Of a DNA stretch of 31,166 nucleotides, positions 2,360 through 16,542 are shown in pieces. Within the stretch, counting starts at the first letter, position 1, and each line of letters begins with the position of its first letter. Location of the stretch: positions 1 through 31,166 of the IMG/VR virus record IMGVR_UViG_3300044715_000234. One strand, given 5' to 3'. Both the position numbers and the translations under genes were made by a program. A model generated the notes under the pieces. It had not been told where the DNA came from, made no database searches, and saw only the letters and a list, made by a program, of their open reading frames with translations. The stretch comes from a virus.

Positions 2360-2393
2360 AAGTGGGGTGATGCTTCGGCTCACCCCATTTTGC
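2360..2393 (+). terminator. Rho-independent terminator with UUCG tetraloop
   Basis: AAGTGGGGTGA (2360-2370) pairs with TCACCCCATTT (2380-2390), with one G-U pair. Inside, GC-TTCG-GC (2372-2379) forms a CUUCGG tetraloop cap. A short T-rich run follows (ATTTTG). The hairpin separates the small-gene operon from the head genes. It overlaps the longest possible reading of the portal frame (2367), which argues that the portal starts downstream. Confidence 0.85.
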
Positions 2394-2406
2394 TATCCTC
2401 GCCATG
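2391..2406 (+). promoter_or_regulatory. Putative promoter of the head genes (leaderless portal mRNA)
   Basis: TGCTATCCT (2391-2399) is an extended -10 box with TATCCT at 2394-2399. A good -35 is not visible, because the terminator stem occupies that position. The expected RNA start is about 2405-2406, at or just before the possible portal starts (GTG 2406, ATG 2415). No Shine-Dalgarno sequence precedes either start. Confidence 0.45.
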
Positions 2407-2414
2407 TGGCTGAC

Positions 2415-3845
2415 ATGCGTGAACTAGGAACATCAGGATTTCAACATTCTGGCGGTTCTGTAACAGACGAATTTTTAGCGAATCTTCAAGGTATTCGTGG
2501 TATTCGTACATGGCGTGAAATGGCTGATAACGATCCCGTGGTCGGTGCGATGCTGTTTGCTGTTGAACGGCTGATCCTGAATCTGAAATGGAAAGTAGAT
2601 CCCTTTGTTGAAGAGGGCAAGACCAAAGCATCCAAGAAAGATGAAAAGGTCGCCGAATTTGTTGAGCAATGCTTGTACGACATGGAAAACTCTTGGGATG
2701 GAACGGTCGCCGAGATCCTGTCGTTTCTGACTTACGGCTGGTCGTACTCCGAGATCGTCTACAAGAAGCGTGGCGGGATGGACACCAAAGACAAGTCCAA
2801 GCGATCCAAATTTAATGACCAAAAAATTGGTTGGAGAAAGATTTCTAACCGAGCGCAAGAAACATTGTTCCAGTGGGACATTGATGAATCTGGCGATGTG
2901 AGAGCAATGCAACAATTAGACCCGTCTGGCGGTCGTGGTCTGGTGTCAATTCCCATTGAGAAGGCTCTGCACTTCCGTACAACCTCCGCTAGAAACAATC
3001 CTGAAGGACGAAGCCTTTTACGCAATGCGTACCGCCCGTGGCGATTTAAACGCACCATTGAAGAAATTGAAGCGATCGGCATTGAACGAGATCTGGCTGG
3101 TCTGCCAGTCGCTTATGTCCCGCCGTCCATGCTTTCGTCCACCGCAACAACAGACGAAGTGTCTGCCCGCAATGCGATCCAAAACATGGTGCGTGGAATC
3201 AAACGAAACCAAAACGAAGGCATCCTTTTCCCGCTCGCTTTTGACGAGGGTGGGCGAGAGATGTACAAACTGACTCTTCTGTCCAGTGGTGGCAACCGCC
3301 AGTTCAACACTGATGCCATTGTTGCCCGCTATGACCAGCGAATCACAATGACAATTTTGGCTGACTTCATTTTGTTGGGTCACGAAAAAGTCGGTTCGTT
3401 CGCTTTGGGTTCGTCAAAGATTGACTTGTTTCTGACTGCGATCGCCCAGATGACCGCTCAGATTTCTGATGTGTTCAACAAGGATGCTGTTCCGAGATTG
3501 TTGAAGTTGAACGGTATGGATCCCCAGCGCGCACCCGTGATGCGAGTGGAAGAGTTGCAGTCCACCGATCTAACTGTTCTTGGTGACTTCATCACCAAAA
3601 TGGCTGGTGCTGGAGCGTTGCAAGTTGATTCTGGTCTGGATGAGTTTGTTCGTGATCTTGCTGGCTTGCCACCAAAGGTTGAAGAAGAGGGTGCTTTACA
3701 ACAAGGTGCCCAGATGCAACCGAATGCGATGCCCCAACCTCCTGTAGCACCGCAGTCTGCTCCACCCGCTGAAGCGCAACCTGCTCAAGCCCCGCCCGCT
3801 CAAGCGTCTGGTAGTGGTTCGGTTGAAGACTACATCATTCAATAA
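2415..3845 (+). CDS. Portal protein
   Basis: This protein forms the dodecameric ring at the capsid vertex through which DNA is packaged and ejected. The start (MRELGTSGFQHSGG), followed by REMADNDPVVGAMLFAVERLI, is characteristic of a DUF935-like group of phage portals. A helical clip/stem region with charged residues follows, then a long Pro/Ala/Gln-rich tail over the last 50 residues that is probably disordered. At about 476 residues its length is normal. I chose the ATG at 2415; GTG 2406 (three residues longer) would suit a leaderless mRNA. The frame is open back to 2367, but that would place the start inside the terminator. The MuF-like gene follows directly. Confidence 0.85.
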   Translation: MRELGTSGFQHSGGSVTDEFLANLQGIRGIRTWREMADNDPVVGAMLFAVERLILNLKWKVDPFVEEGKTKASKKDEKVAEFVEQCLYDMENSWDGTVAEILSFLTYGWSYSEIVYKKRGGMDTKDKSKRSKFNDQKIGWRKISNRAQETLFQWDIDESGDVRAMQQLDPSGGRGLVSIPIEKALHFRTTSARNNPEGRSLLRNAYRPWRFKRTIEEIEAIGIERDLAGLPVAYVPPSMLSSTATTDEVSARNAIQNMVRGIKRNQNEGILFPLAFDEGGREMYKLTLLSSGGNRQFNTDAIVARYDQRITMTILADFILLGHEKVGSFALGSSKIDLFLTAIAQMTAQISDVFNKDAVPRLLKLNGMDPQRAPVMRVEELQSTDLTVLGDFITKMAGAGALQVDSGLDEFVRDLAGLPPKVEEEGALQQGAQMQPNAMPQPPVAPQSAPPAEAQPAQAPPAQASGSGSVEDYIIQ

Positions 3846-3876
3846 AGCCTCACCTTTAACGCCAAACGAGATCGGG

Positions 3877-4713
3877 ATGGCTGGTGCTGTCTCTCAAATT
3901 TCGTCAAGTTTGTCTCGGAGTTTGTTGGGTGTTATTGGTGGTTCGTCGGATGGTGTAACTGCTTTGGGTCGGTTGAGTTCGGTTGATATTTTGGATCAAC
4001 TTCAGGACTTAACACCAGCAATTATTGGTCCGTTGATAAACGAACTTAACTTGTCTGCCATTGATGCGATTGCTTCTATCCCGCCACAGTTAAGCATCGG
4101 AGTCAGTTTCAATACCACTGACCCTCGCGCGCTCGCGTGGGCGACCCAGCGGGCTGGCGAGTTCGTTGTCCAAATCAGTGACGAGGTACGGTCACAGATC
4201 AGGGATCTGATCTCTCGTGGATACCGTGACCAAATGACTGTAGATGCCATTGCAAGAGAACTACGGAACATTGTCGGGTTGCATTCTCGTTGGGCTACCG
4301 CAGTGGAAAACATGTATGTACGAACACTTGACGGGCTTATCAATTCTGGTGTTGCATTAGGTATGGCGACTACGCAGGCAACCAGTCTTGCGGGGGCGTA
4401 CCGTGACAAGTTGATCGCTTCACGGGCTAACACGATCGCCAGAACCGAAGTCATTGGGGCTAATAACGCTGGACGCTATTTGGGGTGGCAACAGTTCATG
4501 CAACAGTCTGGTTATCCGCCGAACTTGATGCAGAAAGAATGGGTTGTTGGTCCTGACGGTTGGCAGGGGATTAATGTATGCGATCTGTGTCTTGAGTTAG
4601 ATGGCACGATTGTTGGTGTGAATGATGAGTTTCCTAGTGGTCGGTTGATGCCTCCGTTGCATCCGAATTGTCGTTGTACTGCTTTGCTGATTTTTCCTGA
4701 GGATGGTTTGTGA
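3877..4713 (+). CDS. MuF / SPP1 gp7-like minor head protein
   Basis: The C-terminal half matches the Mu gpF/SPP1 gp7 head morphogenesis family. It has an IARTEVIGANNAGRYLGWQQ segment, then CDLC (from residue 235), LDG, and PPLHPNCRC (HPNCRC from residue 262), the signature Cys/His set of this domain. Such proteins bind the portal, are carried in a few copies inside the head and affect DNA ejection. In other phages MuF proteins carry C-terminal toxin domains; this one ends straight after the MuF domain. The start is uncertain: ATG 3877 has a weak GAG ahead, while GTG 3814 would overlap the portal by 32 bases. The next gene overlaps its stop (TGATG). Confidence 0.85.
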   Translation: MAGAVSQISSSLSRSLLGVIGGSSDGVTALGRLSSVDILDQLQDLTPAIIGPLINELNLSAIDAIASIPPQLSIGVSFNTTDPRALAWATQRAGEFVVQISDEVRSQIRDLISRGYRDQMTVDAIARELRNIVGLHSRWATAVENMYVRTLDGLINSGVALGMATTQATSLAGAYRDKLIASRANTIARTEVIGANNAGRYLGWQQFMQQSGYPPNLMQKEWVVGPDGWQGINVCDLCLELDGTIVGVNDEFPSGRLMPPLHPNCRCTALLIFPEDGL

Positions 4714-6419
4714 TGCCGTACAAGATTGAGCAGAGGGCTGACAAGTTTGTTGTTGTTCGTGAAGACGGCGGGAGAGTTGTTGGTACGCATTCGTCTAGGG
4801 CTAAGGCGACGGCTCATGTGCGGGCTTTGTATGCAAATGTTAAGGATGCCATTGAGAAGGCAAAGTTTGCTTCTCGTAGCGAAGCAGGCAAGTACGCCGC
4901 TCACATTCGGTGGATGCGAGAGCGGGGTATGGAACCGTTAACGCCTGATGCTTGGCGTAGCCAGAACGCTCAACCAGTTCAACCGACAAGAAGTTCTTAT
5001 GAAAGTTCGTTAGATGCGATCACAAGTTTTGCTAGTGATGAGTTTCAAAGCAGATTGCGTGATGCCGGTGCTTCTATAAGGGGTAGTAGGTATGACGGTG
5101 GCAGATTGGTTCCGTTAGGAGAATATTTAAATATTCAAAACGAAATGTCTGTGGTTAGAGTTCGTAACCCAAATAATCCTGTGAATACAATAATTATTGG
5201 TTCTCCTCCTCTGATGGCGGTTGAACGAGAAGTCAATGAACTGGGCGGGTTAGTGCATAATGCGATACTAGAAAAAATGAAACAAGACGGACATATTTTG
5301 CCAAACGGTGAATTTAATACTGCCAAACACGAAGCGTTAATGCAAGTTCGTGACGAATCGCAGGCTGTTGTTGATGAGATTAGAGCCAAAGCCAAAGAAT
5401 TAGGGCTACAACAGTTCACTGGTTATGAAAACGGTGCCCAAACTGAAGAAATGAAAATTGGGTGGCGTGGAGATCCTAAAGATATAGATACTGCGGACCT
5501 CCCTCCTCGTCTCAAAAATTTGCACGAAAAATGGGACACACTGCACCAAGAATTTTACGAAATTCCGTGGAGTGAACGAGATGCGAATGTTTCAAAAAGA
5601 GAACAGTTAGATGCCGCTAAAGACGAATACGAGAAAGCCGCGCTCGCCGATTTTGAAACTTGGTTTAACGCTAACCACAATCCGTCAGGATCTGGAAGTC
5701 ACAAAGATCAGTTTTCAAAAATAAGTAATAATCACAACAACAATATGAGAGCGGTCTGGTCTTATCCAAATTATGTGGATCGGTATGCTGAAAGTTTTAG
5801 TAAAGTCATGGAAGATCTAAATATTTCTGCCAAGTCACAAATTGGTAAATCTGACCAAATTGATTTAAGTAGAAGTAGGTTGACCAAAGCAGAAAAAGAA
5901 AAGTTTGCTAGGGACATTCACACATTTTTTCCTGCTAAAGCAATCAAAATTTTTAGTGATAGATATGGCTTACTGAAAGTAACAAAATCCAAAGGTGGTG
6001 GGCATTGGAATGTTAGTGATGTACAAATTTTGACATCTAATTCGGAAGGTACGAACATACATGAATTTATGCATGCTTTAACTTATGCGGATCGTCGGGC
6101 TAACTTTGTGGAACAAGCATTTCTTATGCGACGGCAAACAGTTGGTGGGCGTAATAATCAGCCTATTAAAGAACGCATTGTTAATGGTTGGGAAAAACCT
6201 AAACAAACTTATGACGGAGGAAGAGGTAGACGGTTTGACTCTCTATATATTCGTGACGAGTTTGCGGATGAATATACGGGCAGGCATTATTCGTCTGGTC
6301 ATACCGAAACTATGACAACTGGTTTGGATCGCCTGTCTGAAGGTGGCACTCATATTGAAGATCAGGATCACATGAACTCTACTTTAGGTTTGCTTGTAGC
6401 GATTGGGTTGGGACAATGA
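4713..6419 (+). CDS. Tagged head-associated protein with HExxH zincin-like domain
   Basis: This is a 568-residue protein in three parts. Residues 1-45 form a small beta-beta-alpha module (MPYKIEQRADKFVVVRED...RAKATAHVRALYANV) of a type I associate with phage head and protease proteins. Residues 48-83 carry the shared tag (KFASRSEAGKYAAHIRW, then RGMEPLTPDAW). The rest is a long A-rich-coded domain with HEFMH at 450-454, a zinc-metallopeptidase HExxH motif, and a later DEFADEYTGRHYSSG stretch that could supply further ligands. A similar end (Y.G..Y, then HE or TE ahead of a TTG) occurs in the next protein. I infer a head-packaged metallopeptidase-like effector; its substrate is unknown. The start is ATG 4713 (TGATG overlap). 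Confidence 0.7.
   Translation: MPYKIEQRADKFVVVREDGGRVVGTHSSRAKATAHVRALYANVKDAIEKAKFASRSEAGKYAAHIRWMRERGMEPLTPDAWRSQNAQPVQPTRSSYESSLDAITSFASDEFQSRLRDAGASIRGSRYDGGRLVPLGEYLNIQNEMSVVRVRNPNNPVNTIIIGSPPLMAVEREVNELGGLVHNAILEKMKQDGHILPNGEFNTAKHEALMQVRDESQAVVDEIRAKAKELGLQQFTGYENGAQTEEMKIGWRGDPKDIDTADLPPRLKNLHEKWDTLHQEFYEIPWSERDANVSKREQLDAAKDEYEKAALADFETWFNANHNPSGSGSHKDQFSKISNNHNNNMRAVWSYPNYVDRYAESFSKVMEDLNISAKSQIGKSDQIDLSRSRLTKAEKEKFARDIHTFFPAKAIKIFSDRYGLLKVTKSKGGGHWNVSDVQILTSNSEGTNIHEFMHALTYADRRANFVEQAFLMRRQTVGGRNNQPIKERIVNGWEKPKQTYDGGRGRRFDSLYIRDEFADEYTGRHYSSGHTETMTTGLDRLSEGGTHIEDQDHMNSTLGLLVAIGLGQ
4854..4965 (+). repeat. Tag copy 1 (AAHIRWM type)
   Basis: Residues 48-84 of the 4713 protein: EKAKFASRSEAGKYAAHIRW, then MRERGMEPLTPDAW. 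It is one of six copies in five genes. Copies 1, 3, 5 and 6 share AAHIRW followed by RG.xP; copies 2 and 4 share AA[QE]QRWKNHAK. Confidence 0.9.
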
Positions 6420-9232
6420 TTAGGTTCGGGTATGTCCAGAATGGTGTTCAGCGGTTTGCTGAGTGGACTGAAGAGTCTGGGCTTGTATGCGAAGACGATT
6501 TGCTTGATGCCGTCAATCTTTTGATTGGGGCTAAGGCTCCTGTTAAGTGTTCTTGGGTCGGGTATTTGATGGAAGCGTCTGTTGATACTCCTGTGCAGGC
6601 GTGGGGGACTATCAATAAGGCATTGAAGTGGTGTAATGGTGTTGAGTTGGTTCGTTGTACGCCACCGTTGATTGAGTATGACGAGTTTTCGGAACCTGAA
6701 GAGGATCTGCTTGAGAAAGCAACTTTTAGTTCACGATCTGAAGCAGGCAGATATGCCGCCCAACAGCGTTGGAAGAACCATGCGAAACAAGAAACGCTGT
6801 TAACTCCAACCGATGATGTTTCTTTGGCACAAAAAACTGGTCAACCAATTACATGGTTGCTTCCTGCTACACGGGATATGCGGTTAAAAGGTTTGTTAAG
6901 TAGTTTGGCTCCTCATTTTATTGCTACTGGTGTGTCAGTCCAAGATTTTGACTCTGTGTTGGGTGATCCAGCAATTAAACCGTTGATTAAATATTTGGAA
7001 GATAAAGGTATTGTTGATATACCAGATTTTTATAGTTCTGAGGGTGCGACTAATGCTGAGTTGGTTGCTCACGGGTTAATTGTTTCGGCGATGCAAGACC
7101 TTGCTTTGAAGATGAGGTCTAGCAGTTTGGATGTTGACCGAAGCAAATCGTTCAATCAGGCAATTCAGATCGCTACTGATGGTTTTCCAACAGTCAACAT
7201 GGGTATTACCGCTTTTGAGATGATGATGGATGAGGGCGGTCGTTACAAGACACAGTTTGAGGCTGGTGATTCTGGTGGATATTTTAGTCCAGATTTGCGG
7301 GCGGCTTTTGAATCTAGCGTGTTGGGTTTACATCCTGACATGGATGCGACTAAGCGTCCCGTGTATGGCACTATGCAGACCTCAACAAGTTTAAAAACAA
7401 GTGAAGATGCTCAAATGTACGGTGGCATTGTTTTGCAGTTAAAGAATAATGTTCGGGATCGGACAACTGTTGCTTACAACGATTCGTTGGGTATGGCGAC
7501 AAGAACTGCTCCAGCAAACAGTGTTAAAGATGATTCTGGTGGCATGTTTCGTACTGGCATGATTACGGAACCGTTTTTTTATGTTGAGGCTCAGATTCAT
7601 GGTGGTGTCAACATGGATGATGTTGATGCTGTTTGGATTCACAATTTTACGGGTGTAGATGCTGAGGCTCCTCGTCGTGTAAGGGAAGCGTTGGATGCGA
7701 ATGGGTACACGGATGTTCCTGTGTTGCGTGTGGGCGTGGACGAACCTGTGGAGAAAGCGAAGTTCAGTTCACGAAGTGAGGCAGGTAGGTATGCGGCTCA
7801 CATTAGGTGGATGAATGAGCGTGGTATGACTCCGATGACCGCCGACCAGTGGAATGCACAGAACTCTGGTGGTTCGGAGCGCATGCGAAAGATTAAAAGC
7901 ATGCAAGCGGATGTTTCTAAGCGACTTAAAAACTTGAATGATGTTTTGGTTAAGTCTGGTTTGGCATCTGAGGGAATGTGGAACCAAGGAAGATTAGATA
8001 GTAATGGTGATTTAAAGTATGTTGTTGTTGATCCTAAAGATTGGGATAAGACCAGCGTTCCTGAGGTAAGTAAAAGTCCGATGGCGGCATGGCTTGTTGA
8101 AGTAGACATAAAAAACCCAGAGAGTCCTTTTGCAACATATCAAGTTCCTAATGCTGAGGTCATGGCTTTGATGGAGGATGTTAAAACTTTAGGTTCGTTA
8201 ATTGAAGAAGAAGTTCAAGAGCGGATCAACGCACAAAATATTCGTTTGGCAACTGGAGCAGAAGCATCCCGTGACTTTACTTTAAAAATTGTTAACGCCC
8301 AGAGAGTGATAACGCATTACGAAACAATCACTTCCAGATTTTTGAATGATTTCATCACTTTTAAAGCAGATCCGAATGACCCAACACCAAAATTTCAACA
8401 ATATGTTAAGTCAGGTCAACCTAAAATGATTGGGAGCCTTGTTGATTATGCCCCAAGTTTGGGAGAATTTATTGAAAGTAATAACAGTGCTGACGAAAAA
8501 GTTTTGCTTTCTGCTTTAATAGAAAAAACGCGATCTTCTGTTCTTGAATTAAACCAATTAGGATTTGAGCAGAACACTTCGGCAAAATATCGGCGTGAAG
8601 TTTTGGCTGAAATTCGTTCTTTCGGTGCTGACGAAGGTACTCCTTATGAAATTGTTACTGGTTTCAATTTCCCGAATGGGGCACCTGTAGAAGTCCGTAT
8701 TGCTGATGCGATGCAAAATTTACCAACGGCATGGATTGACAATTTAAAAACTTACACGCAAACAAAAACTACGCATAGAGTGTTAAGAGCAAAAACTGTT
8801 AACGAAATGCAATCAGGGTACATTGAAGCGAATCATATAATTCAAACTTCGGCAAATGCTCAGACTGCTTTTGTTATCCACGAATTGGTTCATGCTGTTG
8901 AAGCGTCAAGCCCAGTCATGCGAGCAATGGTTCATTCTTTTGGTGTCAATAGAAGAGTCGGTAATTTTAGACCTTCAGAAGAAAAGTTTGGTAGCACTTT
9001 TGCTCAAAGGTTACAAACTGGGATTTGGGAAGAATCTGGGCGATCTGGTTTCGTTGAAGATAGTTATTTTGATAAGTATTCTGGGCGTGTGTACGGCGGG
9101 TTCGCGTATTCTGCTCACGAACAGTTGACTACGGGGACAGATTATTCGTTGTTTGTCAATACGATTCGTCCGCATGACCGTATTGACTCGGATCAGTTGA
9201 CTTTTACATTAGGAATGTGGGCTTCAGCATGA
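6416..9232 (+). CDS. Double-tagged protein: DUF3626-like domain plus HExxH zincin-like domain
   Basis: At 938 residues this looks like two effector units in one chain. Residues 1-95 form an N-terminal domain related to that of the 9229 protein. The first tag is at 100-124. Residues 130-440 resemble DUF3626: PDMDATKRPVYGTMQ, then an LQLKNNVRDRTTVAYNDS core and VEAQIHGGV. That family is of uncertain activity and possibly ADP-ribosyltransferase-like. The second tag starts near 444 and is followed by a metallopeptidase-like domain with HELVH at 822-826 and a C-terminal KYSGRVYGGFAYSAHEQLTTG stretch similar to the 4713 protein. ATG 6416 overlaps the previous stop. The DUF3626 match is by recall and moderate at best. 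Confidence 0.65.
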   Translation: MIRFGYVQNGVQRFAEWTEESGLVCEDDLLDAVNLLIGAKAPVKCSWVGYLMEASVDTPVQAWGTINKALKWCNGVELVRCTPPLIEYDEFSEPEEDLLEKATFSSRSEAGRYAAQQRWKNHAKQETLLTPTDDVSLAQKTGQPITWLLPATRDMRLKGLLSSLAPHFIATGVSVQDFDSVLGDPAIKPLIKYLEDKGIVDIPDFYSSEGATNAELVAHGLIVSAMQDLALKMRSSSLDVDRSKSFNQAIQIATDGFPTVNMGITAFEMMMDEGGRYKTQFEAGDSGGYFSPDLRAAFESSVLGLHPDMDATKRPVYGTMQTSTSLKTSEDAQMYGGIVLQLKNNVRDRTTVAYNDSLGMATRTAPANSVKDDSGGMFRTGMITEPFFYVEAQIHGGVNMDDVDAVWIHNFTGVDAEAPRRVREALDANGYTDVPVLRVGVDEPVEKAKFSSRSEAGRYAAHIRWMNERGMTPMTADQWNAQNSGGSERMRKIKSMQADVSKRLKNLNDVLVKSGLASEGMWNQGRLDSNGDLKYVVVDPKDWDKTSVPEVSKSPMAAWLVEVDIKNPESPFATYQVPNAEVMALMEDVKTLGSLIEEEVQERINAQNIRLATGAEASRDFTLKIVNAQRVITHYETITSRFLNDFITFKADPNDPTPKFQQYVKSGQPKMIGSLVDYAPSLGEFIESNNSADEKVLLSALIEKTRSSVLELNQLGFEQNTSAKYRREVLAEIRSFGADEGTPYEIVTGFNFPNGAPVEVRIADAMQNLPTAWIDNLKTYTQTKTTHRVLRAKTVNEMQSGYIEANHIIQTSANAQTAFVIHELVHAVEASSPVMRAMVHSFGVNRRVGNFRPSEEKFGSTFAQRLQTGIWEESGRSGFVEDSYFDKYSGRVYGGFAYSAHEQLTTGTDYSLFVNTIRPHDRIDSDQLTFTLGMWASA
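6713..6787 (+). repeat. Tag copy 2 (AAQQRWKNHAK type)
   Basis: Residues 100-124 of the 6416 protein: EKATFSSRSEAGRYAAQQRW, then KNHAK. It closely matches copy 4 in the 9229 gene. It precedes the DUF3626-like domain. Confidence 0.9.
7749..7863 (+). repeat. Tag copy 3 (AAHIRWM type), internal
   Basis: The second copy within the 6416 protein, near residues 445-482: EKAKFSSRSEAGRYAAHIRW, then MNERGMTPMTADQW. It stands between the DUF3626-like and zincin-like domains, at the junction expected if two tag-effector genes fused. Confidence 0.9.
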
Positions 9233-10203
9233 AATTAGATTGGTTGACCGTTGACGGTGACAGTATTTCGTGGGATAACGGGGTGGTTGATGCCCCGCAA
9301 GAGTTTTTGGACAATGTGGACTTTCTGGTTGATGCGAAGGTTCGTGTTCGGTCGCCTCGGTTTTATTTTGCTGAGGAGGTTGCTGGTATGGACACGATGT
9401 TGGGGGCTTTGTTGACGATTGAGTTTTTGTTGGATGTTTTGGGTGTTGGTTTGGTTGAGGCTCCGATGCCGTTTGGGGTGTCGGATGTTTTTGTGACTGA
9501 TAATCACGATGTGTTTGATGGTTCGGGTGAGTTTGAGAAGGCTATGTCTCGGAGTGAAGCGGGCAGGTATGCGGCGGAACAGCGTTGGAAGAACCATGCG
9601 AAGAAGGTTGATCCTGTTCGGGTGCTTGATCCGCAGTATCAGAAAGTTGCTGATCGGATTAACGCTGGTACAAAATCAGTAACTGATGCTGGTTTCCAAA
9701 TTGAAATAATCAATTCTCCTGAAGATCGGCAACGCATATTGGAGATGCATACAAAATTTAAAGATTTTGTTGTTGAACAAAGGAATTTGTGGCGAGATAC
9801 AAAAGGAAAAGAAGGTAAATATTTTTCTGATAGAACAATTTCTGGTCTTCAGTTAATGACAACTTCTATAAAAAGGGGAGCAACACGAGGGACAACAATT
9901 GTTGTTCACGATGGATCATTAGTTGCTGGTGCCGCTCTTGCTCATATTCAGACAAACAGTATGGCTGATGGTAAACCTATGTCAATTTGGCTTATGGGGT
10001 CGGCTCATATAGTTGAAGGTGCTGGTTCTGCTATGTATGGCGCGCTTTTGAAATGGGGTCAATCTCAAGGTGTTACATCTATTGAATTAGATCCGTTACC
10101 TGATGCTAAAACTTTTTGGCAGACAAAAATGAGAATGATTTGGACTGGTGAAGAAATGGTTTATTCTGATAGCAAAATTGGAATGATTGGGGCGTTGAAA
10201 TGA
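9229..10203 (+). CDS. Tagged protein with GNAT acetyltransferase-like domain
   Basis: This protein has 324 residues. Residues 1-95 form an N-terminal domain related to that of the 6416 protein (compare FLDNVDFLVDAK with LLDAVNLLIGAK, and GVGLVEAPMP with GVELVRCTPP). The tag copy is at 103-125. Residues 130-324 look like a GNAT fold: a beta strand pair (TTIVVHDGSLVAGAALAHIQ), then the acetyl-CoA loop region EGAGSAMYGALLKWGQ near 262-277, and SIELDPLP..KTFWQTKM at the end. It would acetylate an unknown amine target. ATG 9229 overlaps the previous stop. Base composition changes sharply after the tag. Confidence 0.7.
   Translation: MKLDWLTVDGDSISWDNGVVDAPQEFLDNVDFLVDAKVRVRSPRFYFAEEVAGMDTMLGALLTIEFLLDVLGVGLVEAPMPFGVSDVFVTDNHDVFDGSGEFEKAMSRSEAGRYAAEQRWKNHAKKVDPVRVLDPQYQKVADRINAGTKSVTDAGFQIEIINSPEDRQRILEMHTKFKDFVVEQRNLWRDTKGKEGKYFSDRTISGLQLMTTSIKRGATRGTTIVVHDGSLVAGAALAHIQTNSMADGKPMSIWLMGSAHIVEGAGSAMYGALLKWGQSQGVTSIELDPLPDAKTFWQTKMRMIWTGEEMVYSDSKIGMIGALK
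9535..9606 (+). repeat. Tag copy 4 (AAEQRWKNHAK type, shortened)
   Basis: Residues 103-125 of the 9229 protein: EKAMSRSEAGRYAAEQRW, then KNHAKK. The KFSS portion of the other copies is reduced to MS, so the conserved core is SRSEAGRYAA..RW. Just downstream the coding strand changes from A-poor to A-rich. Confidence 0.9.
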
Positions 10204-11279
10204 TCGGGTCGTTGGATGATATGGATGATGCGATGCCTGATCTATTGGATTGGCTTCGTTCTAATGTTGAGTTTGAGAAAGCAAAGTTCAGTTCTCGTAG
10301 TGAGGCTGGGAAGTATGCGGCTCATATTAGGTGGATGAACCAGAGGGGTATGACTCCGTTGTCTGCTGAGGCTTGGACGGCTAGTCAGAGTGCTGATGCG
10401 ACACCTGTTGTTACGGCTCCGACTGTACCGTCACGGTTTACTGCTACTGGTATGTGGTGGGATGCACAACCGCCCGCTCTTGCTTCTATGAAAGATGCGA
10501 TCACATGGTTGCAGGATAAATGGGGTGGCACAACAAAAGATCAACGGCGTAGATTCAGAGTAAAACTGAATGCTATGGGAAGTAACCCCAAAACGGATCA
10601 TTTGGCTCAAGCGTATGCCATTGCAATGGATAACTTGTTTAAATTTGCACCTATCGTGGCGGAAACTATTGAAGAAGTAGTTTGGGATGAAAATCAAATA
10701 CGGAATTCGTGGGGTCAGGCTAGTCGTGATGGTCACAGTCTAAATTTCATTGCAAGCACTTTTGTACAAACTTTGATACAGCCAGATGGAACAGTTATCC
10801 CTTCGGAGCAATATGCGTTGTTTGCAAAAGAACAAGCATTTTCAACGGGGTTCAAATCTTCAAGGTCGCTGAGTAGCACTTTTTATCACGAGTTTGGGCA
10901 CCACATTGGGTTTGCCGCTGGTAATAAAGCGTTGTACGGCGATGTTAAAGAAGTTAGACCATCCTTGTATGCGGATTCAGATGATCGTAAAAAGTACAAT
11001 CGTGAACTTGCCAAATTGATTAGCCCGATTCTTAAAGAGCATTACGGAGATGAAAGTCGTGCAAGAATTGAACTTGATGATAAAGCGCAATATAAAATAC
11101 GGGGAAAAATAGAAGAAGACATATCCAAATATGCTTTGACTAACTACGACGAATTGGTTGCGGAATCAGCGGCACAGTATTTTGCCGCCAAATTTGAACC
11201 TGACCAACCGCCAGCGTCACCGTTAGCAATCAAAATTGTTGAGACATTATTGAATTACATAGAAGGAGAGAACAAATGA
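10200..11279 (+). CDS. Tagged protein with zincin metallopeptidase domain
   Basis: This protein has 359 residues. The tag begins at residue 26, so almost nothing precedes it. The C-terminal domain has STFYHEFGHHIGF with HEFGH at 230-234. Near 317-325 comes NYDELVAESAAQYFAAKF, whose glutamates are placed like the third zinc ligand of gluzincin-type enzymes. This is the most convincing of the three HExxH domains in the block. It is probably a peptidase acting on an unknown host or virion protein. ATG 10200 overlaps the previous stop (ATGA). It is followed by two small genes that may be linked in function. Confidence 0.75.
   Translation: MIGSLDDMDDAMPDLLDWLRSNVEFEKAKFSSRSEAGKYAAHIRWMNQRGMTPLSAEAWTASQSADATPVVTAPTVPSRFTATGMWWDAQPPALASMKDAITWLQDKWGGTTKDQRRRFRVKLNAMGSNPKTDHLAQAYAIAMDNLFKFAPIVAETIEEVVWDENQIRNSWGQASRDGHSLNFIASTFVQTLIQPDGTVIPSEQYALFAKEQAFSTGFKSSRSLSSTFYHEFGHHIGFAAGNKALYGDVKEVRPSLYADSDDRKKYNRELAKLISPILKEHYGDESRARIELDDKAQYKIRGKIEEDISKYALTNYDELVAESAAQYFAAKFEPDQPPASPLAIKIVETLLNYIEGENK
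10275..10385 (+). repeat. Tag copy 5 (AAHIRWM type), near N-terminus
   Basis: Residues 26-62 of the 10200 protein: EKAKFSSRSEAGKYAAHIRW, then MNQRGMTPLSAEAW. This copy shows that the tag can work near the N-terminus without a large preceding domain. Confidence 0.9.
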
Positions 11280-11721: not shown

Positions 11722-13731
11722 ATGCATACACACGAAATAGACCAGTGGATTAACGGCGATCTGGCGTGGGAAGATTTGTCTGTTGAAGCGCAACGAAGTG
11801 TTGATGCTGATGCGATGAAGGCTGAACCTGTCGCCGAAATGGAACTGGTTCACAAGTCGGTTGCTGAGAAGCGATTCACTTTGGGTCCGTGGTATATCCC
11901 TAATCGGTTGGATGCTCATAATGAGTGGACGGACGCTGACGAGTTGCAGGCTGGTTTGTGGGATTATGTTCGTAAGGGTGATCGTGGTATCCGTTTACAG
12001 CACAATCGTGACATTGTGGCTGGTGAATGGGTTGAGGCTATGCAACTGCCTGTACCGATGCGAATGCAGAAAGCGGCTGACGGCGGGGATGTTGAATATC
12101 CTGAGGGGACAGTGTTTTTGGGTGTTGTTTGGAAGCAGTGGGCGTGGGATCTGGTGAAGAACGGCAAAATTAAAGGTTTTTCTATTGGTGGTTCGTCGGC
12201 TCGTCTGCCAATTGAGCCTGTTTCTAAGGCTGTCGGGTTCAAACCGATGTTTATTCCTGCGTTGATTCGGGTTTCAGGTAAGTCTTTTGCTGTCCGTCCA
12301 GATGGTGGAGGGGTTCGGGTTTCGTCGGGTTCTGATGCTGTTGTGTTTGATCCGTATCGGGCTGATGTGGTTGCTAAGTCTGTTTCTGGAGCGCAGTTTG
12401 CTGATGCGAAGACGATGGTGGCGATTTCTAAAGCGATCTTGACTGGCAATGTTGATGCTGGAATGTGGGCTGATACTGGGGTTTCGTGGGTTTTTGTTAA
12501 GGCTAAGTTCAGTTCTCGTTCTGAGGCGGCTCGTTACGCCGCTCATATTCGTTGGGCTACTGAACGAGGTGAAACCCCGATGGGTGCGGGCGAGTTTTCG
12601 GAACAAATTAAGTCGTCTGCGGATTATGCGATGATGAATTTGAAGAAAAATCGTGATGCTTTGGCTTCCAAGATGGAGTTTCCGCATAACGATCTTCCTG
12701 TTGGTCCGTTGGGTTTGCCAACTTCTCCTGCTGGTAAGTCTTTGTTTAACACTTCTCCGTCGCTTGGCGGGCATGTTGATTTTGACGCTATGGGCAAGTA
12801 CATGATGGATCGTTTAGATCAACCGAACATGGGTTTTGGTAAGGCGGGGTTGCCTACAGAAGCACCGTATGATGTTCTTCGTCGTTTTATGACTCCTGAA
12901 CGGCGGGCTTTGCACGATGCGATCGTTGACGCTCATTTGGCTGGCAAAACGGCTAGAGATGATACCCCCGAATACACTTGGCTTGGTGGTGGTGGTGCTT
13001 CTGGTAAAACCAGCATTTTGGAATCTGGTGCCGCTAGTGTTCCGACCCGTGTTTTGAAGAATGGTTCGGCTGTACCAAGTGGTGATATGCACTCTGTTGA
13101 GATCAATGCTGACGAAATCAAAGATTTGTTACCAGAGTTTTTGGCGTTGACAAAGGGTGGGGAAAAAAGGGTTTATGTCACTGCTGACGGTAGAGAAAAG
13201 CCTTATGAATTGGGTCGTTCAACTGAGCGGGCACGATTTGTTGCGGCTGGTTTTACTCACGAAGAGTCGTCTATCCTTGCGAAGCGTATTAACTCCGAGG
13301 CTATGTACAGAGGTTTGGACATTGTGATGGATGGTACTGCTGACGGCAAACCGGGGGCACAAGCGAAGAAGGTTGCTGTGGCTCAAGCAAACGGCTATAA
13401 AACTCGTTTGATTATGGTGACTATCCCTACCGAAGTGGCTATTGTTCGTTCTAATGAGCGAGGTATTACTTCGGGGCGTAAGGTTCCTGAGTTCGCTTTG
13501 CGTGACGCTCATGTTGGGGCTTCGGCAAGATTTTTGGAAACGGCACCGCTGTATGACTCTTTTGAGGCTTATGATAACTCAGGGCGACCGCCACAAAAAT
13601 TTGTAAGTAAGAGTACCAAGGGTGGTCGGGTTACTATTCAAAATAAAGCCCTGTATGATGCTTTCTTAGCGAAGGCTGGCGAAAGTTTGGGCGAGTCAAC
13701 AGCAAGGGATGAACCGTGGACATTAGCGTAA
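11722..13731 (+). CDS. XkdF-like prohead protease fused through the tag to a zeta-toxin-like kinase
   Basis: At 669 residues this is far longer than a normal prohead protease. Residues 43-205 resemble the XkdF/phage serine protease group, with LQHNRDIVAGEWVEAM around H94 and GFSIGGSS around S154 as likely active-site segments. Tag copy 6 lies at 259-290. From about 390 onward comes a zeta-toxin-type P-loop kinase: Walker A GGASGKTS at 424-431, INADEIKDLLPEF, GLDIVMDGTADG, and RSNERGITSGRKVP. Zeta toxins phosphorylate UDP-N-acetylglucosamine, which blocks wall synthesis. I infer that the protease matures the head and may free the kinase from the tag. AAGGTG precedes ATG 11722. Confidence 0.8.
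   Translation: MHTHEIDQWINGDLAWEDLSVEAQRSVDADAMKAEPVAEMELVHKSVAEKRFTLGPWYIPNRLDAHNEWTDADELQAGLWDYVRKGDRGIRLQHNRDIVAGEWVEAMQLPVPMRMQKAADGGDVEYPEGTVFLGVVWKQWAWDLVKNGKIKGFSIGGSSARLPIEPVSKAVGFKPMFIPALIRVSGKSFAVRPDGGGVRVSSGSDAVVFDPYRADVVAKSVSGAQFADAKTMVAISKAILTGNVDAGMWADTGVSWVFVKAKFSSRSEAARYAAHIRWATERGETPMGAGEFSEQIKSSADYAMMNLKKNRDALASKMEFPHNDLPVGPLGLPTSPAGKSLFNTSPSLGGHVDFDAMGKYMMDRLDQPNMGFGKAGLPTEAPYDVLRRFMTPERRALHDAIVDAHLAGKTARDDTPEYTWLGGGGASGKTSILESGAASVPTRVLKNGSAVPSGDMHSVEINADEIKDLLPEFLALTKGGEKRVYVTADGREKPYELGRSTERARFVAAGFTHEESSILAKRINSEAMYRGLDIVMDGTADGKPGAQAKKVAVAQANGYKTRLIMVTIPTEVAIVRSNERGITSGRKVPEFALRDAHVGASARFLETAPLYDSFEAYDNSGRPPQKFVSKSTKGGRVTIQNKALYDAFLAKAGESLGESTARDEPWTLA
12496..12600 (+). 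repeat. Tag copy 6 (AAHIRW type) between protease and kinase
   Basis: Residues 259-293 of the 11722 protein: VKAKFSSRSEAARYAAHIRW, then ATERGETPMGAGEF. It is the only copy with EAA in place of EAG. It separates the protease from the kinase domain. Confidence 0.9.
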
Positions 13732-13997
13732 ACCGTATTAGCCGTTTGATGCAGGCTATTGTTTTGGGCGAGGACGCTGAGGCGTTATGCGAATCGCCTG
13801 AGGAGTTGCAGATTCTTCCGCAGTTGCGTGAGGAGTGCCAGTTTGAAGATGGAATGATTTTGGATTTCCAGAATGATTCTGTGGATGCGAATGCTTGGGA
13901 TTGTGCTGGGTTTGATCGTGATGCTTGGGAAGCGGCGGGGATGCCTGACGATGCTTGGGCGTTTGTGAAGCCGTATGTATCAGAGGCTTGGGCTTGA
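13716..13997 (+). CDS. Small acidic Trp-repeat protein (93 aa)
   Basis: I do not recognise the family. The first half is acidic and helical. The second half repeats an [NDE]AW unit (ANAWDCAGFD, RDAWEAAGMPD, DAWAFVK, SEAW). The start is GTG 13716, with AAGGG at 13704-13708; it overlaps the kinase gene by 16 bases. Because it is acidic, about the size of an epsilon antitoxin, and coupled to the zeta-like gene, it could be a neutralising partner. I see no sequence match to epsilon, so this rests on position alone. Confidence 0.6.
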   Translation: MDISVNRISRLMQAIVLGEDAEALCESPEELQILPQLREECQFEDGMILDFQNDSVDANAWDCAGFDRDAWEAAGMPDDAWAFVKPYVSEAWA

Positions 13998-14040: not shown

Positions 14041-14424
14041 ATGAAACCAATTGCTGTATACGGAACCCTGATAAAAGGATTCCACAACTCACGGCTGTGG
14101 GATGGGCTTGCTACCTACGAGGAGTGCATCATCCACGATTTCCGTCTTGTCACTCACGGGTGGTACCCGTATGCGATACCAGACGAGGGATCAATAACAG
14201 TCGGTCAAATTATTACGCCGACAAGTGAAGTTAACGCTTCAACGATCTTGTCTCGGCTTGATTATTTAGAAGGTGTTCCCGATCATTACAGTCGTGAATC
14301 TGCAACTGTTGAACTTGAGAATGGTGCGATTGTTACTGCATGGATTTATGTTCCTGTGAGTGATGAATCAAGTTTGGATCCTGTGCCAGAAAACGACTGG
14401 CGACTTTACGCAAGTCTTGTTTAG
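14041..14424 (+). CDS. Gamma-glutamylcyclotransferase-like (AIG2-type) protein
   Basis: This 127-residue protein has the hallmarks of the GGCT/AIG2 fold. VYGTL at residues 6-10 forms the substrate loop, followed by GFHN. G..PYAIPDEG lies mid-chain, and RLDYLEGVPDHYSR places the likely catalytic Glu at 77. Members release 5-oxoproline from gamma-glutamyl peptides or amines. What a phage gains is unclear; changes to glutathione-like thiols or peptide cross-links are possibilities. It has its own promoter (P3) and a strong Shine-Dalgarno sequence, so it is expressed separately from the head genes, like a moron. Confidence 0.8.
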   Translation: MKPIAVYGTLIKGFHNSRLWDGLATYEECIIHDFRLVTHGWYPYAIPDEGSITVGQIITPTSEVNASTILSRLDYLEGVPDHYSRESATVELENGAIVTAWIYVPVSDESSLDPVPENDWRLYASLV

Positions 14425-14461: not shown

Positions 14462-15160
14462 ATGGCTTCGCGGAAAATGGTAAACATGAACATTGAAGAG
14501 ACTTCTGGTGTTGACCATCCCGCGCACATGGACGAAGGATGGATCCTTATGAAGAACTCTGGTTTAAACACCGAAGATTTTGAAACGATTGAAAAAATGG
14601 TCGCTTTGGAATCAGAACTTGCTGACGCTCAGGCTCGCCTTGCCTCTTTAGAAACTGAAGAGACAACCGAAGAGACAACCGAAGACATGGACTACATGGA
14701 CGACGATGCGATGATGAAGTCGGCTCCGCCTGCTGTTCGTGAAGCATTGTTGAAGGCTCGTAACGAGGCTTTTGTTGCTCAGGAAGAACTACGCAAAGAG
14801 CGTGAAGTCCGTCTTGACGCTCACGCAATTGCTAAGAGCATGGACGATTATGGCAATCTTGCTATTGACCACGAAGAATTTGGTCCTGCCCTTCGCCGTT
14901 TGGAAGAACTTGACGCAACAGTCGTTGAGATCATCGCTAAGGCTTTGCAGTCCGCTAACGCTCAGGCTGAATCAGCCAACATTTTTGCCGAAATCGGCTC
15001 TTCATACATGCCAAATACTGCTGGCAGTTTCCAGAAGATTGAATCGCTCGCTAAGTCCGCTGTGACCAAGGGCGAATATAAGACCGTTGAGCAAGCAATC
15101 GCTGGCTTGATTGAAACCAACCCATCGTTGTACGCAGAGTACATCGCTGAAACCCGCTGA
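14462..15160 (+). CDS. Capsid scaffolding-like protein
   Basis: The protein has 232 residues. It opens with NIEETSGVDHPAHMDEGWIL, a motif seen at the protease/scaffold boundary of related phages. It then has a long acidic helical middle with a repeated ETTEETTED stretch, and coiled-coil segments (ALESELADAQARLASLE; ALLKARNEAFVAQEELRKERE). This matches a scaffolding protein placed just before the decoration and major capsid genes. It would shape the procapsid and then be removed, probably by the XkdF-like protease. No Shine-Dalgarno sequence precedes ATG 14462; see the P4 entry. Confidence 0.7.
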   Translation: MASRKMVNMNIEETSGVDHPAHMDEGWILMKNSGLNTEDFETIEKMVALESELADAQARLASLETEETTEETTEDMDYMDDDAMMKSAPPAVREALLKARNEAFVAQEELRKEREVRLDAHAIAKSMDDYGNLAIDHEEFGPALRRLEELDATVVEIIAKALQSANAQAESANIFAEIGSSYMPNTAGSFQKIESLAKSAVTKGEYKTVEQAIAGLIETNPSLYAEYIAETR

Positions 15161-15591: not shown

Positions 15592-16542
15592 ATGCCCCAG
15601 CCCACACAAAATCAGGTACATGTTGATGCGATTCTGACGAACATCAGTGTCGCTTACATGCAAAAAGCCGAAAACTTCATTGCAAACAAGATCTTCCCGA
15701 TCGTTCCTGTTGAGAAGCAGTCGGACAAGTTCTTCAAGTACACCAAGAACGACTGGTTCCGTGACGAAGCACAGCGACGCGCTGATGCGACGGAATCTGC
15801 TGGTGGCGGTTACAACTTGTCAACCGATTCGTACAACGCTGAAGTGTGGGCTTTCCACAAGGATGTTGGCGATCAGACTCGTGCAAATGCTGATGCTCCT
15901 ATCAATGTGGATCGTGAAGCGGTTGAGTTCATTACGAGCCGTTTGTTGCTCAAGATGGAAACTGAATTCGTTTCAAGTTATTTCACGAGTGGCATTTGGG
16001 CTACTGACAACACTCCGTCAAACTTGTGGTCGGATTACACCAACAGTGACCCGTTGAACGATGTTGAAGATGCGAAGCGAGCAATCCTTTCCACTACTGG
16101 TTTTGAACCGAACACGCTTGTGCTTGGTTACGATGTTTTCAAGGAATTGAAGAATCACCCAGATCTCGTTGACCGTATCAAGTACACCTCGTCTTCGGTT
16201 ATCACGACTGACATGATCGCTCGTATGTTTGATGTTGATCGTGTTGTGGTTTCAAAGGCTGTCAAGGCAACCAACAATGAAGGTGCCACTGGTGCTTATG
16301 ACTTCACTGCTGGTAAGAATGCGCTCTTGTGCTATTCGGCTCCGTCACCGGGTCTTCTCCAGCCGTCTGCTGGTTACATCATGTCTTGGACTGGTGTTTC
16401 TGGTGGTCTTGGTCAGACGATCGGTTCAAGCCGTTTCCGTATGGAATCAGTGAAGGCTGACCGTATTGAAGCAGAAATGGCTTTTGACATGAAGGTCGTT
16501 GCCGCTGACCTCGGTTACTTCTTCGCCAGCGTGGTTTCGTGA
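15592..16542 (+). CDS. Major capsid protein
   Basis: This 316-residue HK97-fold type coat protein builds the icosahedral shell. It begins VDAILTNISVAYMQKAENFIANKIFP, then has the extended arm region (DKFFKYTKNDWFRDEAQRRA). It continues with NPLND-like VEDAKRAILSTTGFEPNTLVLGYDVFKELKNHPDLVDRIKY and SSVITTDMIARMFDVDRVVV, which is typical of the A-domain in this coat-protein group. The end (RIEAEMAFDMKVVAADLGYFF) is also typical. There is no cleavable scaffold domain, which agrees with a separate scaffold gene upstream. AAGGAATAAATC precedes ATG 15592. Confidence 0.9.
   Translation: MPQPTQNQVHVDAILTNISVAYMQKAENFIANKIFPIVPVEKQSDKFFKYTKNDWFRDEAQRRADATESAGGGYNLSTDSYNAEVWAFHKDVGDQTRANADAPINVDREAVEFITSRLLLKMETEFVSSYFTSGIWATDNTPSNLWSDYTNSDPLNDVEDAKRAILSTTGFEPNTLVLGYDVFKELKNHPDLVDRIKYTSSSVITTDMIARMFDVDRVVVSKAVKATNNEGATGAYDFTAGKNALLCYSAPSPGLLQPSAGYIMSWTGVSGGLGQTIGSSRFRMESVKADRIEAEMAFDMKVVAADLGYFFASVVS

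What the first reader, a model, noticed from the sequence alone, without database searches (positions are those of the whole stretch)
11722..13731. Prohead protease fused to a zeta-toxin-like kinase through the tag
The gene encodes an XkdF-like protease (H94, S154 regions), a tag copy (259-290) and a kinase with Walker A at 424-431. Prohead proteases are usually separate and lost after cutting the head interior. If this one cuts next to the EKAKF-type sequence before each tag, it could both mature the head and release the six tagged cargo units, including its own kinase. The cut position is inference; the fusion is visible.
Basis: partly seen in the sequence, partly recalled or inferred. Interest (0 to 1): 0.8.

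Follow-up and report, generated by a model that had tools for sequence, protein, structure and literature searches.

The report
Phage head protease carrying toxin-like kinase
In a group of uncultured phages the enzyme that matures the virus head is made as one protein with a toxin-like kinase, joined through a short motif that also labels other likely injected enzymes and followed by a small acidic protein that looks like the kinase's antidote; this suggests a head part that doubles as a toxin carrier, though packaging, cutting and toxicity are all untested.

Summary
The fusion is real and conserved. ORF 11722-13731 encodes an intact XkdF-type (S78_2) prohead protease, one copy of a 13-residue core motif (RS[E/A]AGRYAAxxRW; the 'tag') and a zeta-toxin-fold kinase. 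The same protease-tag-kinase order occurs in 18 distinct uncultured-phage ORFs, in one clade of proteases. The tag behaves as a cargo label: it marks several other likely enzyme genes in these phages and none of the structural genes in the window, it stays with the kinase when the kinase sits in another gene, and where relatives have lost the kinase it has decayed. New here: a 60-100-residue acidic protein family sits behind 69 of 95 distinct kinases and behind all 23 protease-kinase fusions, is absent from every collected locus without a kinase, and is lost with the kinase in three lineages. In this window it is 13716-13997. It looks like an antitoxin, untested. The closest known kinds are MuF polymorphic toxins and polyvalent head proteins. 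I rate this a new variant of a known kind: the prohead protease takes MuF's place as carrier, with an undescribed cargo motif. Packaging, cutting and toxicity are inferred.

The parts
11722..13731 (+). fusion gene: XkdF-type prohead protease - tag - zeta-like kinase, 669 aa
   Evidence: ORF and translation; Pfam; identical in L004 and L005
11839..12201 (+). XkdF/S78_2 protease domain, residues 40-160; candidate catalytic H94 and S154, with D64 or E105 as candidate third residue
   Evidence: Pfam E=4.6e-9; H94 and S154 invariant in 67 relatives; fold match to XkdF and prohead-protease models
12493..12573 (+). tag copy in the fusion (residues 258-284, core RSEAARYAAHIRW)
   Evidence: tag profile iE 2.3e-13; predicted helix 266-281 at moderate confidence
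12880..13680 (+). zeta-like kinase domain, about residues 387-653; Walker A 422-430, D464, HEESS 513-517
   Evidence: Pfam E=4.2e-16; Foldseek to zeta toxin 1gvn_B E=2.5e-10; conserved motifs in alignment A4; positions
13716..13997 (+). small acidic partner gene (93 aa, pI 4.05, GTG start), overlapping the fusion stop by 16 bases; antitoxin-like
   Evidence: partner family behind the kinase in all 23 protease-kinase fusions; lost with the kinase in L006/L007, L022/L061 and L029; link of this copy to the wider family weaker
4710..6419 (+). tagged gene; metallopeptidase-like (HEFMH motif) cargo
   Evidence: tag at 4851-4931; motif read from the translation
6416..9232 (+). tagged gene with two tags (6710-6790 and 7748-7828); DUF3626 domain, then metallopeptidase-like (HELVH)
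9217..10203 (+). tagged gene (tag 9532-9606), possible GNAT acetyltransferase
   Evidence: tag; Pfam Acetyltransf_1 E=0.11, below cut-off
10200..11279 (+). tagged gene (tag 10272-10352), metallopeptidase-like (HEFGH)
2367..3845 (+). portal protein (context, no tag)
   Evidence: Pfam Portal_Mu E=1e-30
3814..4713 (+). MuF-like head protein (context, no tag, no kinase)
   Evidence: Pfam Phage_Mu_F E=8.7e-13
14462..15160 (+). probable scaffold (context, no tag)
   Evidence: phrog_13547 (unknown function) E=3.1e-55, upstream of the capsid gene; the role as scaffold is inferred from position
15592..16542 (+). major capsid protein (context, no tag)
   Evidence: phrog_1005 major head protein E=4.6e-99

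Best explanation
The gene makes a bifunctional head protein. The N-terminal XkdF protease enters the prohead and matures it. The C-terminal zeta-like kinase rides along as cargo and is meant to be ejected with the DNA into the next host, where it would phosphorylate a nucleotide-type metabolite (a UDP-sugar, as zeta does, or NAD, as AvrRxo1 does). The tag between them is the phage's general label for such cargo. Because the protease would already bring the kinase into the prohead, the tag more likely keeps the kinase inside, or docks it, after the protease has cut itself and left. The small acidic protein encoded just behind the kinase (13716-13997) holds it inactive in the producing cell, as an antitoxin. 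Shown: fusion, conservation, tag-cargo coupling and kinase-partner coupling. Inferred: packaging, ejection, self-cleavage, kinase substrate and the antitoxin role.
For: Intact protease and kinase signatures. Protease-tag-kinase in 18 distinct ORFs, in one supported clade of 21 proteases. The gene lies between portal/MuF and scaffold/capsid genes, and no other recognisable prohead protease was found among the window proteins scanned. Tags: 168 distinct windows with a near-invariant core; 4-13 tags per record in 14 tag-bearing records and none in five records with tagless proteases. Cargo swap: L029 carries a ParB-like domain (by reading) in place of the kinase, and a similar tagged domain is a separate gene in L216. 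In L139 the tag precedes the kinase in the upstream gene while the separate protease has no tag. After kinase loss, L006/L007 hold the only one of 184 tags that lost both the AA and RW positions, and L022/L061 keep only a fragment. Partner: behind all 23 protease-kinase fusions and 69 of 95 kinases, and in no collected locus without a kinase. Known relatives: MuF toxins with downstream immunity-type small ORFs (PMC5576092) and MuF-zeta fusions (PMC5512222).
Against: No virion proteomics, cleavage data or toxicity assay exists for these uncultured phages. The tag has no known homologue in Pfam or PHROGs, so its role is inferred from distribution alone. The partner model A10 was built from genes picked by position. 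A profile built only from kinases outside protease fusions finds the window's copy at just E=0.06, and leaving out window and L058 fails to recover either. 26 of 95 kinases, none of them fused to the protease, show no partner directly behind them at the threshold used. The kinase substrate is unknown. The host is unknown: two genome scans found no prophage relatives.
Confidence: 0.6

Rival explanations
1. One reading: the protease cuts at the EKAKF-type sequence before every tag, maturing the head and releasing the tagged units, its own kinase included.
For: K-[A/G] precedes 164 of 184 distinct tags. T4 capsid targeting sequences are removed by a prohead protease (cited in PMC10052503), and SPN3US gp245 cuts off its own C-terminal piece.
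Against: E-K-A is present before only 69 of 184 tags and 6 of 29 protease-gene copies; the window's own copy reads FVKAKF. The strongly conserved part lies after the proposed cut. Tags vary in position along the protein, and some proteins carry two or three, unlike a removable leader.
Confidence: 0.15
2. The fusion is a translational convenience: kinase and protease stay linked, the kinase is a structural or regulatory part of the prohead, and it is not delivered to the host.
For: The kinase stays beside the protease gene even when it is not fused.
Against: The kinase is replaced by a ParB-like domain or lost without loss of the protease. It is also fused to MuF in other phages, and it keeps its Walker A, Asp and HEESS motifs.
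Confidence: 0.15
3. The small acidic protein is a packaging chaperone or head adaptor, not an antitoxin.
For: It is fused to the N-terminus of the protease in ten loci and to a tagged protein in L072.
Against: Across these rearrangements what stays constant is adjacency to the kinase, not to head genes. Small, acidic and behind the toxin-like gene is the usual immunity-gene arrangement (PMC5576092).
Confidence: 0.3
4. The tag is only a recombination joint or flexible linker through which domains are shuffled, with no role in the protein.
For: Tags sit at domain borders and cargo is shuffled around them.
Against: Amino-acid-level invariance of R, S, A, AA and RW across 168 distinct windows, with visible decay once cargo is gone, points to selection on the protein.
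Confidence: 0.12

Closest known systems
MuF polymorphic toxins of temperate phages (Jamet 2017, PMC5576092)
   Same: A head-morphogenesis protein used as N-terminal carrier for a swappable C-terminal toxin-like domain, followed by a small ORF of immunity type.
   Different: The carrier here is the prohead protease, not MuF. A tag joins carrier and cargo. Two genome scans found no prophage relatives.
Polyvalent phage head proteins, including MuF-zeta fusions (Iyer 2017, PMC5512222)
   Same: Zeta-like kinase, metallopeptidase and other effector domains in head-module proteins predicted to be packaged and injected.
   Different: The passages searched there mention no XkdF, prohead-protease carrier or recurring tag.
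MuF-zeta minor head protein of cyanophage PSS2 (ACT65592.1)
   Same: Homologous kinase (36% identity over 261 residues) fused to a head protein.
   Different: MuF instead of protease, no tag; the partner-like ORF lies about 0.4 kb downstream.
2H phosphoesterase-XkdF fusions of Arthrobacter phages Kovu and Ottawa and Microbacterium phage ValentiniPuff
   Same: A close XkdF relative fused to an enzyme domain.
   Different: The fused domain is N-terminal and different; no tag; annotated as RNA ligase or as capsid maturation protease.
Zeta/PezT toxins and AvrRxo1 with their small antitoxin-type partners
   Same: Kinase fold (1gvn_B E=2.5e-10, 4z8t_A E=1.3e-9), Walker A and catalytic Asp; a small partner.
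   Different: No sequence match of the partner to Pfam, PHROGs or solved antitoxins. The kinase is part of a head protease. Substrate unknown.
T4 capsid targeting sequence and internal proteins
   Same: A short peptide that would direct diverse cargo into the head.
   Different: No similarity was tested or is claimed in sequence; the tag is mostly not at the N-terminus and there is no evidence of its removal.
UniProt A0A6J5PIT0, 'Zeta toxin domain containing protein', uncultured Caudovirales phage
   Same: Its fold model contains this protease domain (E=4.6e-15) and its name a zeta domain, so it is probably the same kind of fusion.
   Different: Only automatically named; tag and partner not examined.

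Membership tests
XkdF / Peptidase_S78_2 prohead protease | profile match over the whole domain | tested here: met
   PF14550, positions 2-123 of 126, E=4.6e-9, above cut-off
XkdF / Peptidase_S78_2 prohead protease | conserved His and Ser of the active site | tested here: met
   H94 and S154 invariant in 67 sequences
XkdF / Peptidase_S78_2 prohead protease | prohead-protease fold | tested here: met
   BFVD matches to XkdF proteins and the HHTV-2 prohead protease; no solved-structure match
XkdF / Peptidase_S78_2 prohead protease | proteolytic activity in head assembly | not testable with these tools
   needs expression or virion proteomics
Zeta toxin-like kinase | fold and profile | tested here: met
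   PF06414 E=4.2e-16; 1gvn_B TM 0.61 by target length
Zeta toxin-like kinase | Walker A and catalytic Asp | tested here: met
   GGGGASGKT 422-430 and D464; invariant G, K and D in the alignment
Zeta toxin-like kinase | toxicity and UDP-sugar phosphorylation | not testable with these tools
   substrate could also be NAD (AvrRxo1-like) or another
Epsilon-type antitoxin (partner) | sequence homology to known antitoxins | tested here: not met
   no Pfam, PHROG or solved-structure match
Epsilon-type antitoxin (partner) | small acidic protein strictly coupled to the kinase | tested here: met
   93 of 101 hits directly behind a kinase; the other eight lie in kinase loci
MuF polymorphic toxin | N-terminal MuF domain | tested here: not met
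   MuF is a separate gene, 3814-4713; the fusion carries XkdF
Polyvalent phage protein | several effector-type domains in a head-module gene, predicted packaged | tested here: inconclusive
   domains and context fit; packaging not shown
T4-type capsid targeting sequence (tag) | directs cargo into the head and is cleaved | not testable with these tools
   only distribution and decay known

The most novel reading that the evidence does not exclude
A virion-delivered toxin-antitoxin module armed by head maturation. The kinase is made joined to the head protease and held off by its small partner; when the protease processes itself in the prohead, the kinase is freed, held by the tag and packaged without its antitoxin. 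In the sister arrangement the antitoxin-like domain is itself the N-terminus of the protease, so loss of the protease during maturation would remove the antidote from the head. A general 13-residue cargo tag would load a whole set of early enzymes in the same phages.
Probability: 0.2. Interest if true: 0.88.

Novelty: new variant of a known kind. Interest (0 to 1): 0.72.

Why it matters
It would make the prohead protease, normally seen only as an assembly enzyme that is discarded, a second carrier for injected toxin-like enzymes beside MuF. The tag is a ready sequence handle: it predicts which proteins of these phages are carried in the head and could be tested as a loading peptide. The kinase-partner pairing, found behind most of 95 phage kinases examined, suggests that many head-borne zeta kinases are toxin-antitoxin pairs, which makes the role of packaged zeta kinases testable.

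Tried and rejected
Tag in isolated phages: tblastn of two tag variants gave only chance-level hits (best E=5 and E=8). Tag and protease in 84,980 bacterial and archaeal species genomes: pattern matches but no confirmed relative, so the host is not identified; the short tag may be hard to confirm this way. Tag in Pfam: none; in PHROGs: one weak hit, E=0.17. Protease against solved structures: no match by sequence or fold. The idea that the protease's own N-terminal 40 residues derive from the partner domain: hhalign probability 0.6%, rejected. E-K-A cut motif: rejected as a general rule. Full-length model: protease part poor (pLDDT mostly below 75); replaced by a protease-only model. PDB search with the partner profile: nothing credible. 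Papers on prohead protease plus zeta toxin fusions: none held.

Full report
What is there. ORF 11722-13731 is an open 669-aa frame. Residues 40-160 match the XkdF/S78_2 prohead protease family (E=4.6e-9) and the C-terminal part matches Zeta_toxin (E=4.2e-16). Between them, at 258-284, is one copy of the tag. The candidate active-site residues H94 and S154 are invariant in 67 relatives, as are D64 and E105. Walker A is at 422-430 and the catalytic-type Asp at 464. A protease-only AlphaFold2 model (pLDDT 80-94 over most of residues 45-150) matches XkdF models and the prohead protease of HHTV-2 in the viral library, though no solved structure. The kinase model matches zeta toxin (E=2.5e-10), AvrRxo1 and PezT.

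Not an artefact. Two further IMG/VR contigs from different datasets carry the identical gene. In the collected loci, protease, tag and kinase lie in one ORF in 18 distinct sequences, the more distant ones only 37-43% identical to the window protein. A protease tree puts the tag-bearing loci in one supported group of 21 rows (SH-aLRT 96), with L139 apart. The tree is short (137 columns) and many forks are open, so only this grouping is used. An entry in the viral structure library is already named 'Zeta toxin domain containing protein' and contains the same protease fold, so such a fusion probably lies unremarked in public data.

The fusion does not depend on the tag. Five protease-kinase ORFs have no tag (L089, L095, L097, L156, L168), and the whole records of L089, L095 and L097 hold none. 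In another set the kinase is the C-terminus of the gene directly upstream of a separate protease gene. XkdF proteases of cultured Arthrobacter and Microbacterium phages are fused to a 2H phosphoesterase.

The tag. A profile search finds tags in 175 distinct ORFs; in 168 distinct windows the core RS[E/A]AGRYAAxxRW is near invariant (R, A, A and R at 100%, W and the second A of AA at 99%). Fourteen tag-bearing records hold 4-13 tags each. In the window no portal, MuF, scaffold, capsid or tail gene has one. Tagged proteins hold DUF3626 and topoisomerase IB domains by profile, and metallopeptidase-like, GNAT-like and ParB-like domains by reading of the sequence. Neither Pfam nor PHROGs describes the tag, and isolated phages give only chance-level hits.

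Why the tag looks like a cargo label. L024 and L029 share protease, tag, linker and second tag; one then carries the kinase, the other a ParB-like domain, and a similar ParB-like domain is a separate tagged gene in L216. DUF3626 cargo sits in different genes in the window and in L006. In L139 the tag precedes the kinase in the upstream gene and the separate protease has none. L006/L007, close relatives of the window, lack the kinase; their leftover tag reads SRVEAGKYAEHVRR and is the only one of 184 that lost both AA and RW. L022/L061 also lack the kinase and keep only SMSRSEAERAYPHDT. Selection on the tag therefore appears tied to cargo. Whether it loads, docks or retains cargo is inference.

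The cut site. K-[A/G] before the tag is common (164 of 184), but E-K-A is present in only 69 of 184, and in 6 of 29 copies in protease genes. The proposed EKAKF rule is not supported. Self-cleavage itself remains plausible: gp245 of SPN3US removes its own 64-residue C-terminal piece (PMC10052503).

A partner for the kinase. The 93-aa ORF 13716-13997 (pI 4.05) overlaps the fusion's stop by 16 bases. Similar small acidic proteins follow the kinase elsewhere. With three profiles, 69 of 95 distinct kinase ORFs with enough downstream sequence have a hit directly behind the kinase, including all 23 protease-kinase fusions. It is usually its own gene, in ten loci the N-terminal domain of the following protease, in two loci part of the kinase ORF, and in L072 the start of a tagged protein. 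Of 101 hits, 93 are directly behind a kinase and the other eight lie in kinase loci; no collected locus without a kinase has one. It is missing where the kinase is missing: L006/L007, L022/L061 and L029. By simple size and charge, 20 of 24 protease-kinase ORFs against 20 of 126 tagged non-kinase ORFs are followed by such a gene (Fisher p=2e-10).

Limits of the partner result. One profile was trained on genes chosen by position. The independent test uses only partners of kinases outside protease fusions: it recovers the partners in L068 (5e-7), L082 (2.5e-5), L077 and L156, and scores the window's own copy at only 0.06. Leaving out window and L058 fails to recover them. Profile-profile comparison joins the two sets (probability 90%, E=1.7e-6) and joins the protease N-terminal domains to them more firmly (96.5%, E=7e-10). 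For the window's own gene the case therefore rests on position, acidity, co-loss and a weak profile link. No library names the family.

Mechanism. The best reading is a head protease that carries a toxin-like kinase into the prohead, a tag that keeps or docks the kinase as ejected cargo, and an antitoxin-like protein that protects the producing cell. [quoted passage not shown] PSS2). The substrate may be a UDP-sugar (zeta) or NAD (AvrRxo1), as discussed in PMC6362051. None of packaging, ejection, cutting, toxicity or inhibition has been shown.

Novelty. I found no paper on a prohead protease-zeta fusion in the library, but most subscription journals are not in it. By the family libraries the tag and the partner are undescribed. 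The system works like MuF toxins but is not a member, since the MuF domain is a separate gene. I therefore file it as a new variant of a known kind.

Noticed in passing
L213:13861-16553 (record of L005, contig 34.9-37.6 kb) and L215:3670-6459: A second cluster of tagged genes lies outside the head module in the longer contigs of this phage and its relative.
   Followed up: partly
L216:6166-7329: A tagged protein with a topoisomerase IB catalytic core (Topoisom_I E=1.9e-17), an unusual predicted head cargo.
   Followed up: partly
L072:6174-7283: The kinase partner domain is fused in frame to the N-terminus of the next tagged protein, so it may be packaged there.
   Followed up: no
L140, L143, L144, L147, L148, L150, L162, L167, L182, L186: The XkdF protease gene carries the kinase partner domain at its N-terminus when the kinase is in the upstream gene (weak also in L139 and L141).
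   Followed up: partly
L077:6237-6890 and L074:6019-6927: Dps/ferritin-like proteins (by reading of the sequence) lie within the tagged-gene cluster.
   Followed up: no
window 14041-14424: A gamma-glutamylcyclotransferase-like gene (by reading) lies between the fusion and the scaffold and is kept in L006/L007.
   Followed up: no
L070:3788-7405: A 1206-aa version of the fusion with three tags and extra domains DUF6321 and DUF5872 between protease and kinase.
   Followed up: no
L205, L176, L180, L181: Some very large MuF proteins hold one or two zeta-like kinase domains; in L205 the kinase precedes MuF.
   Followed up: no
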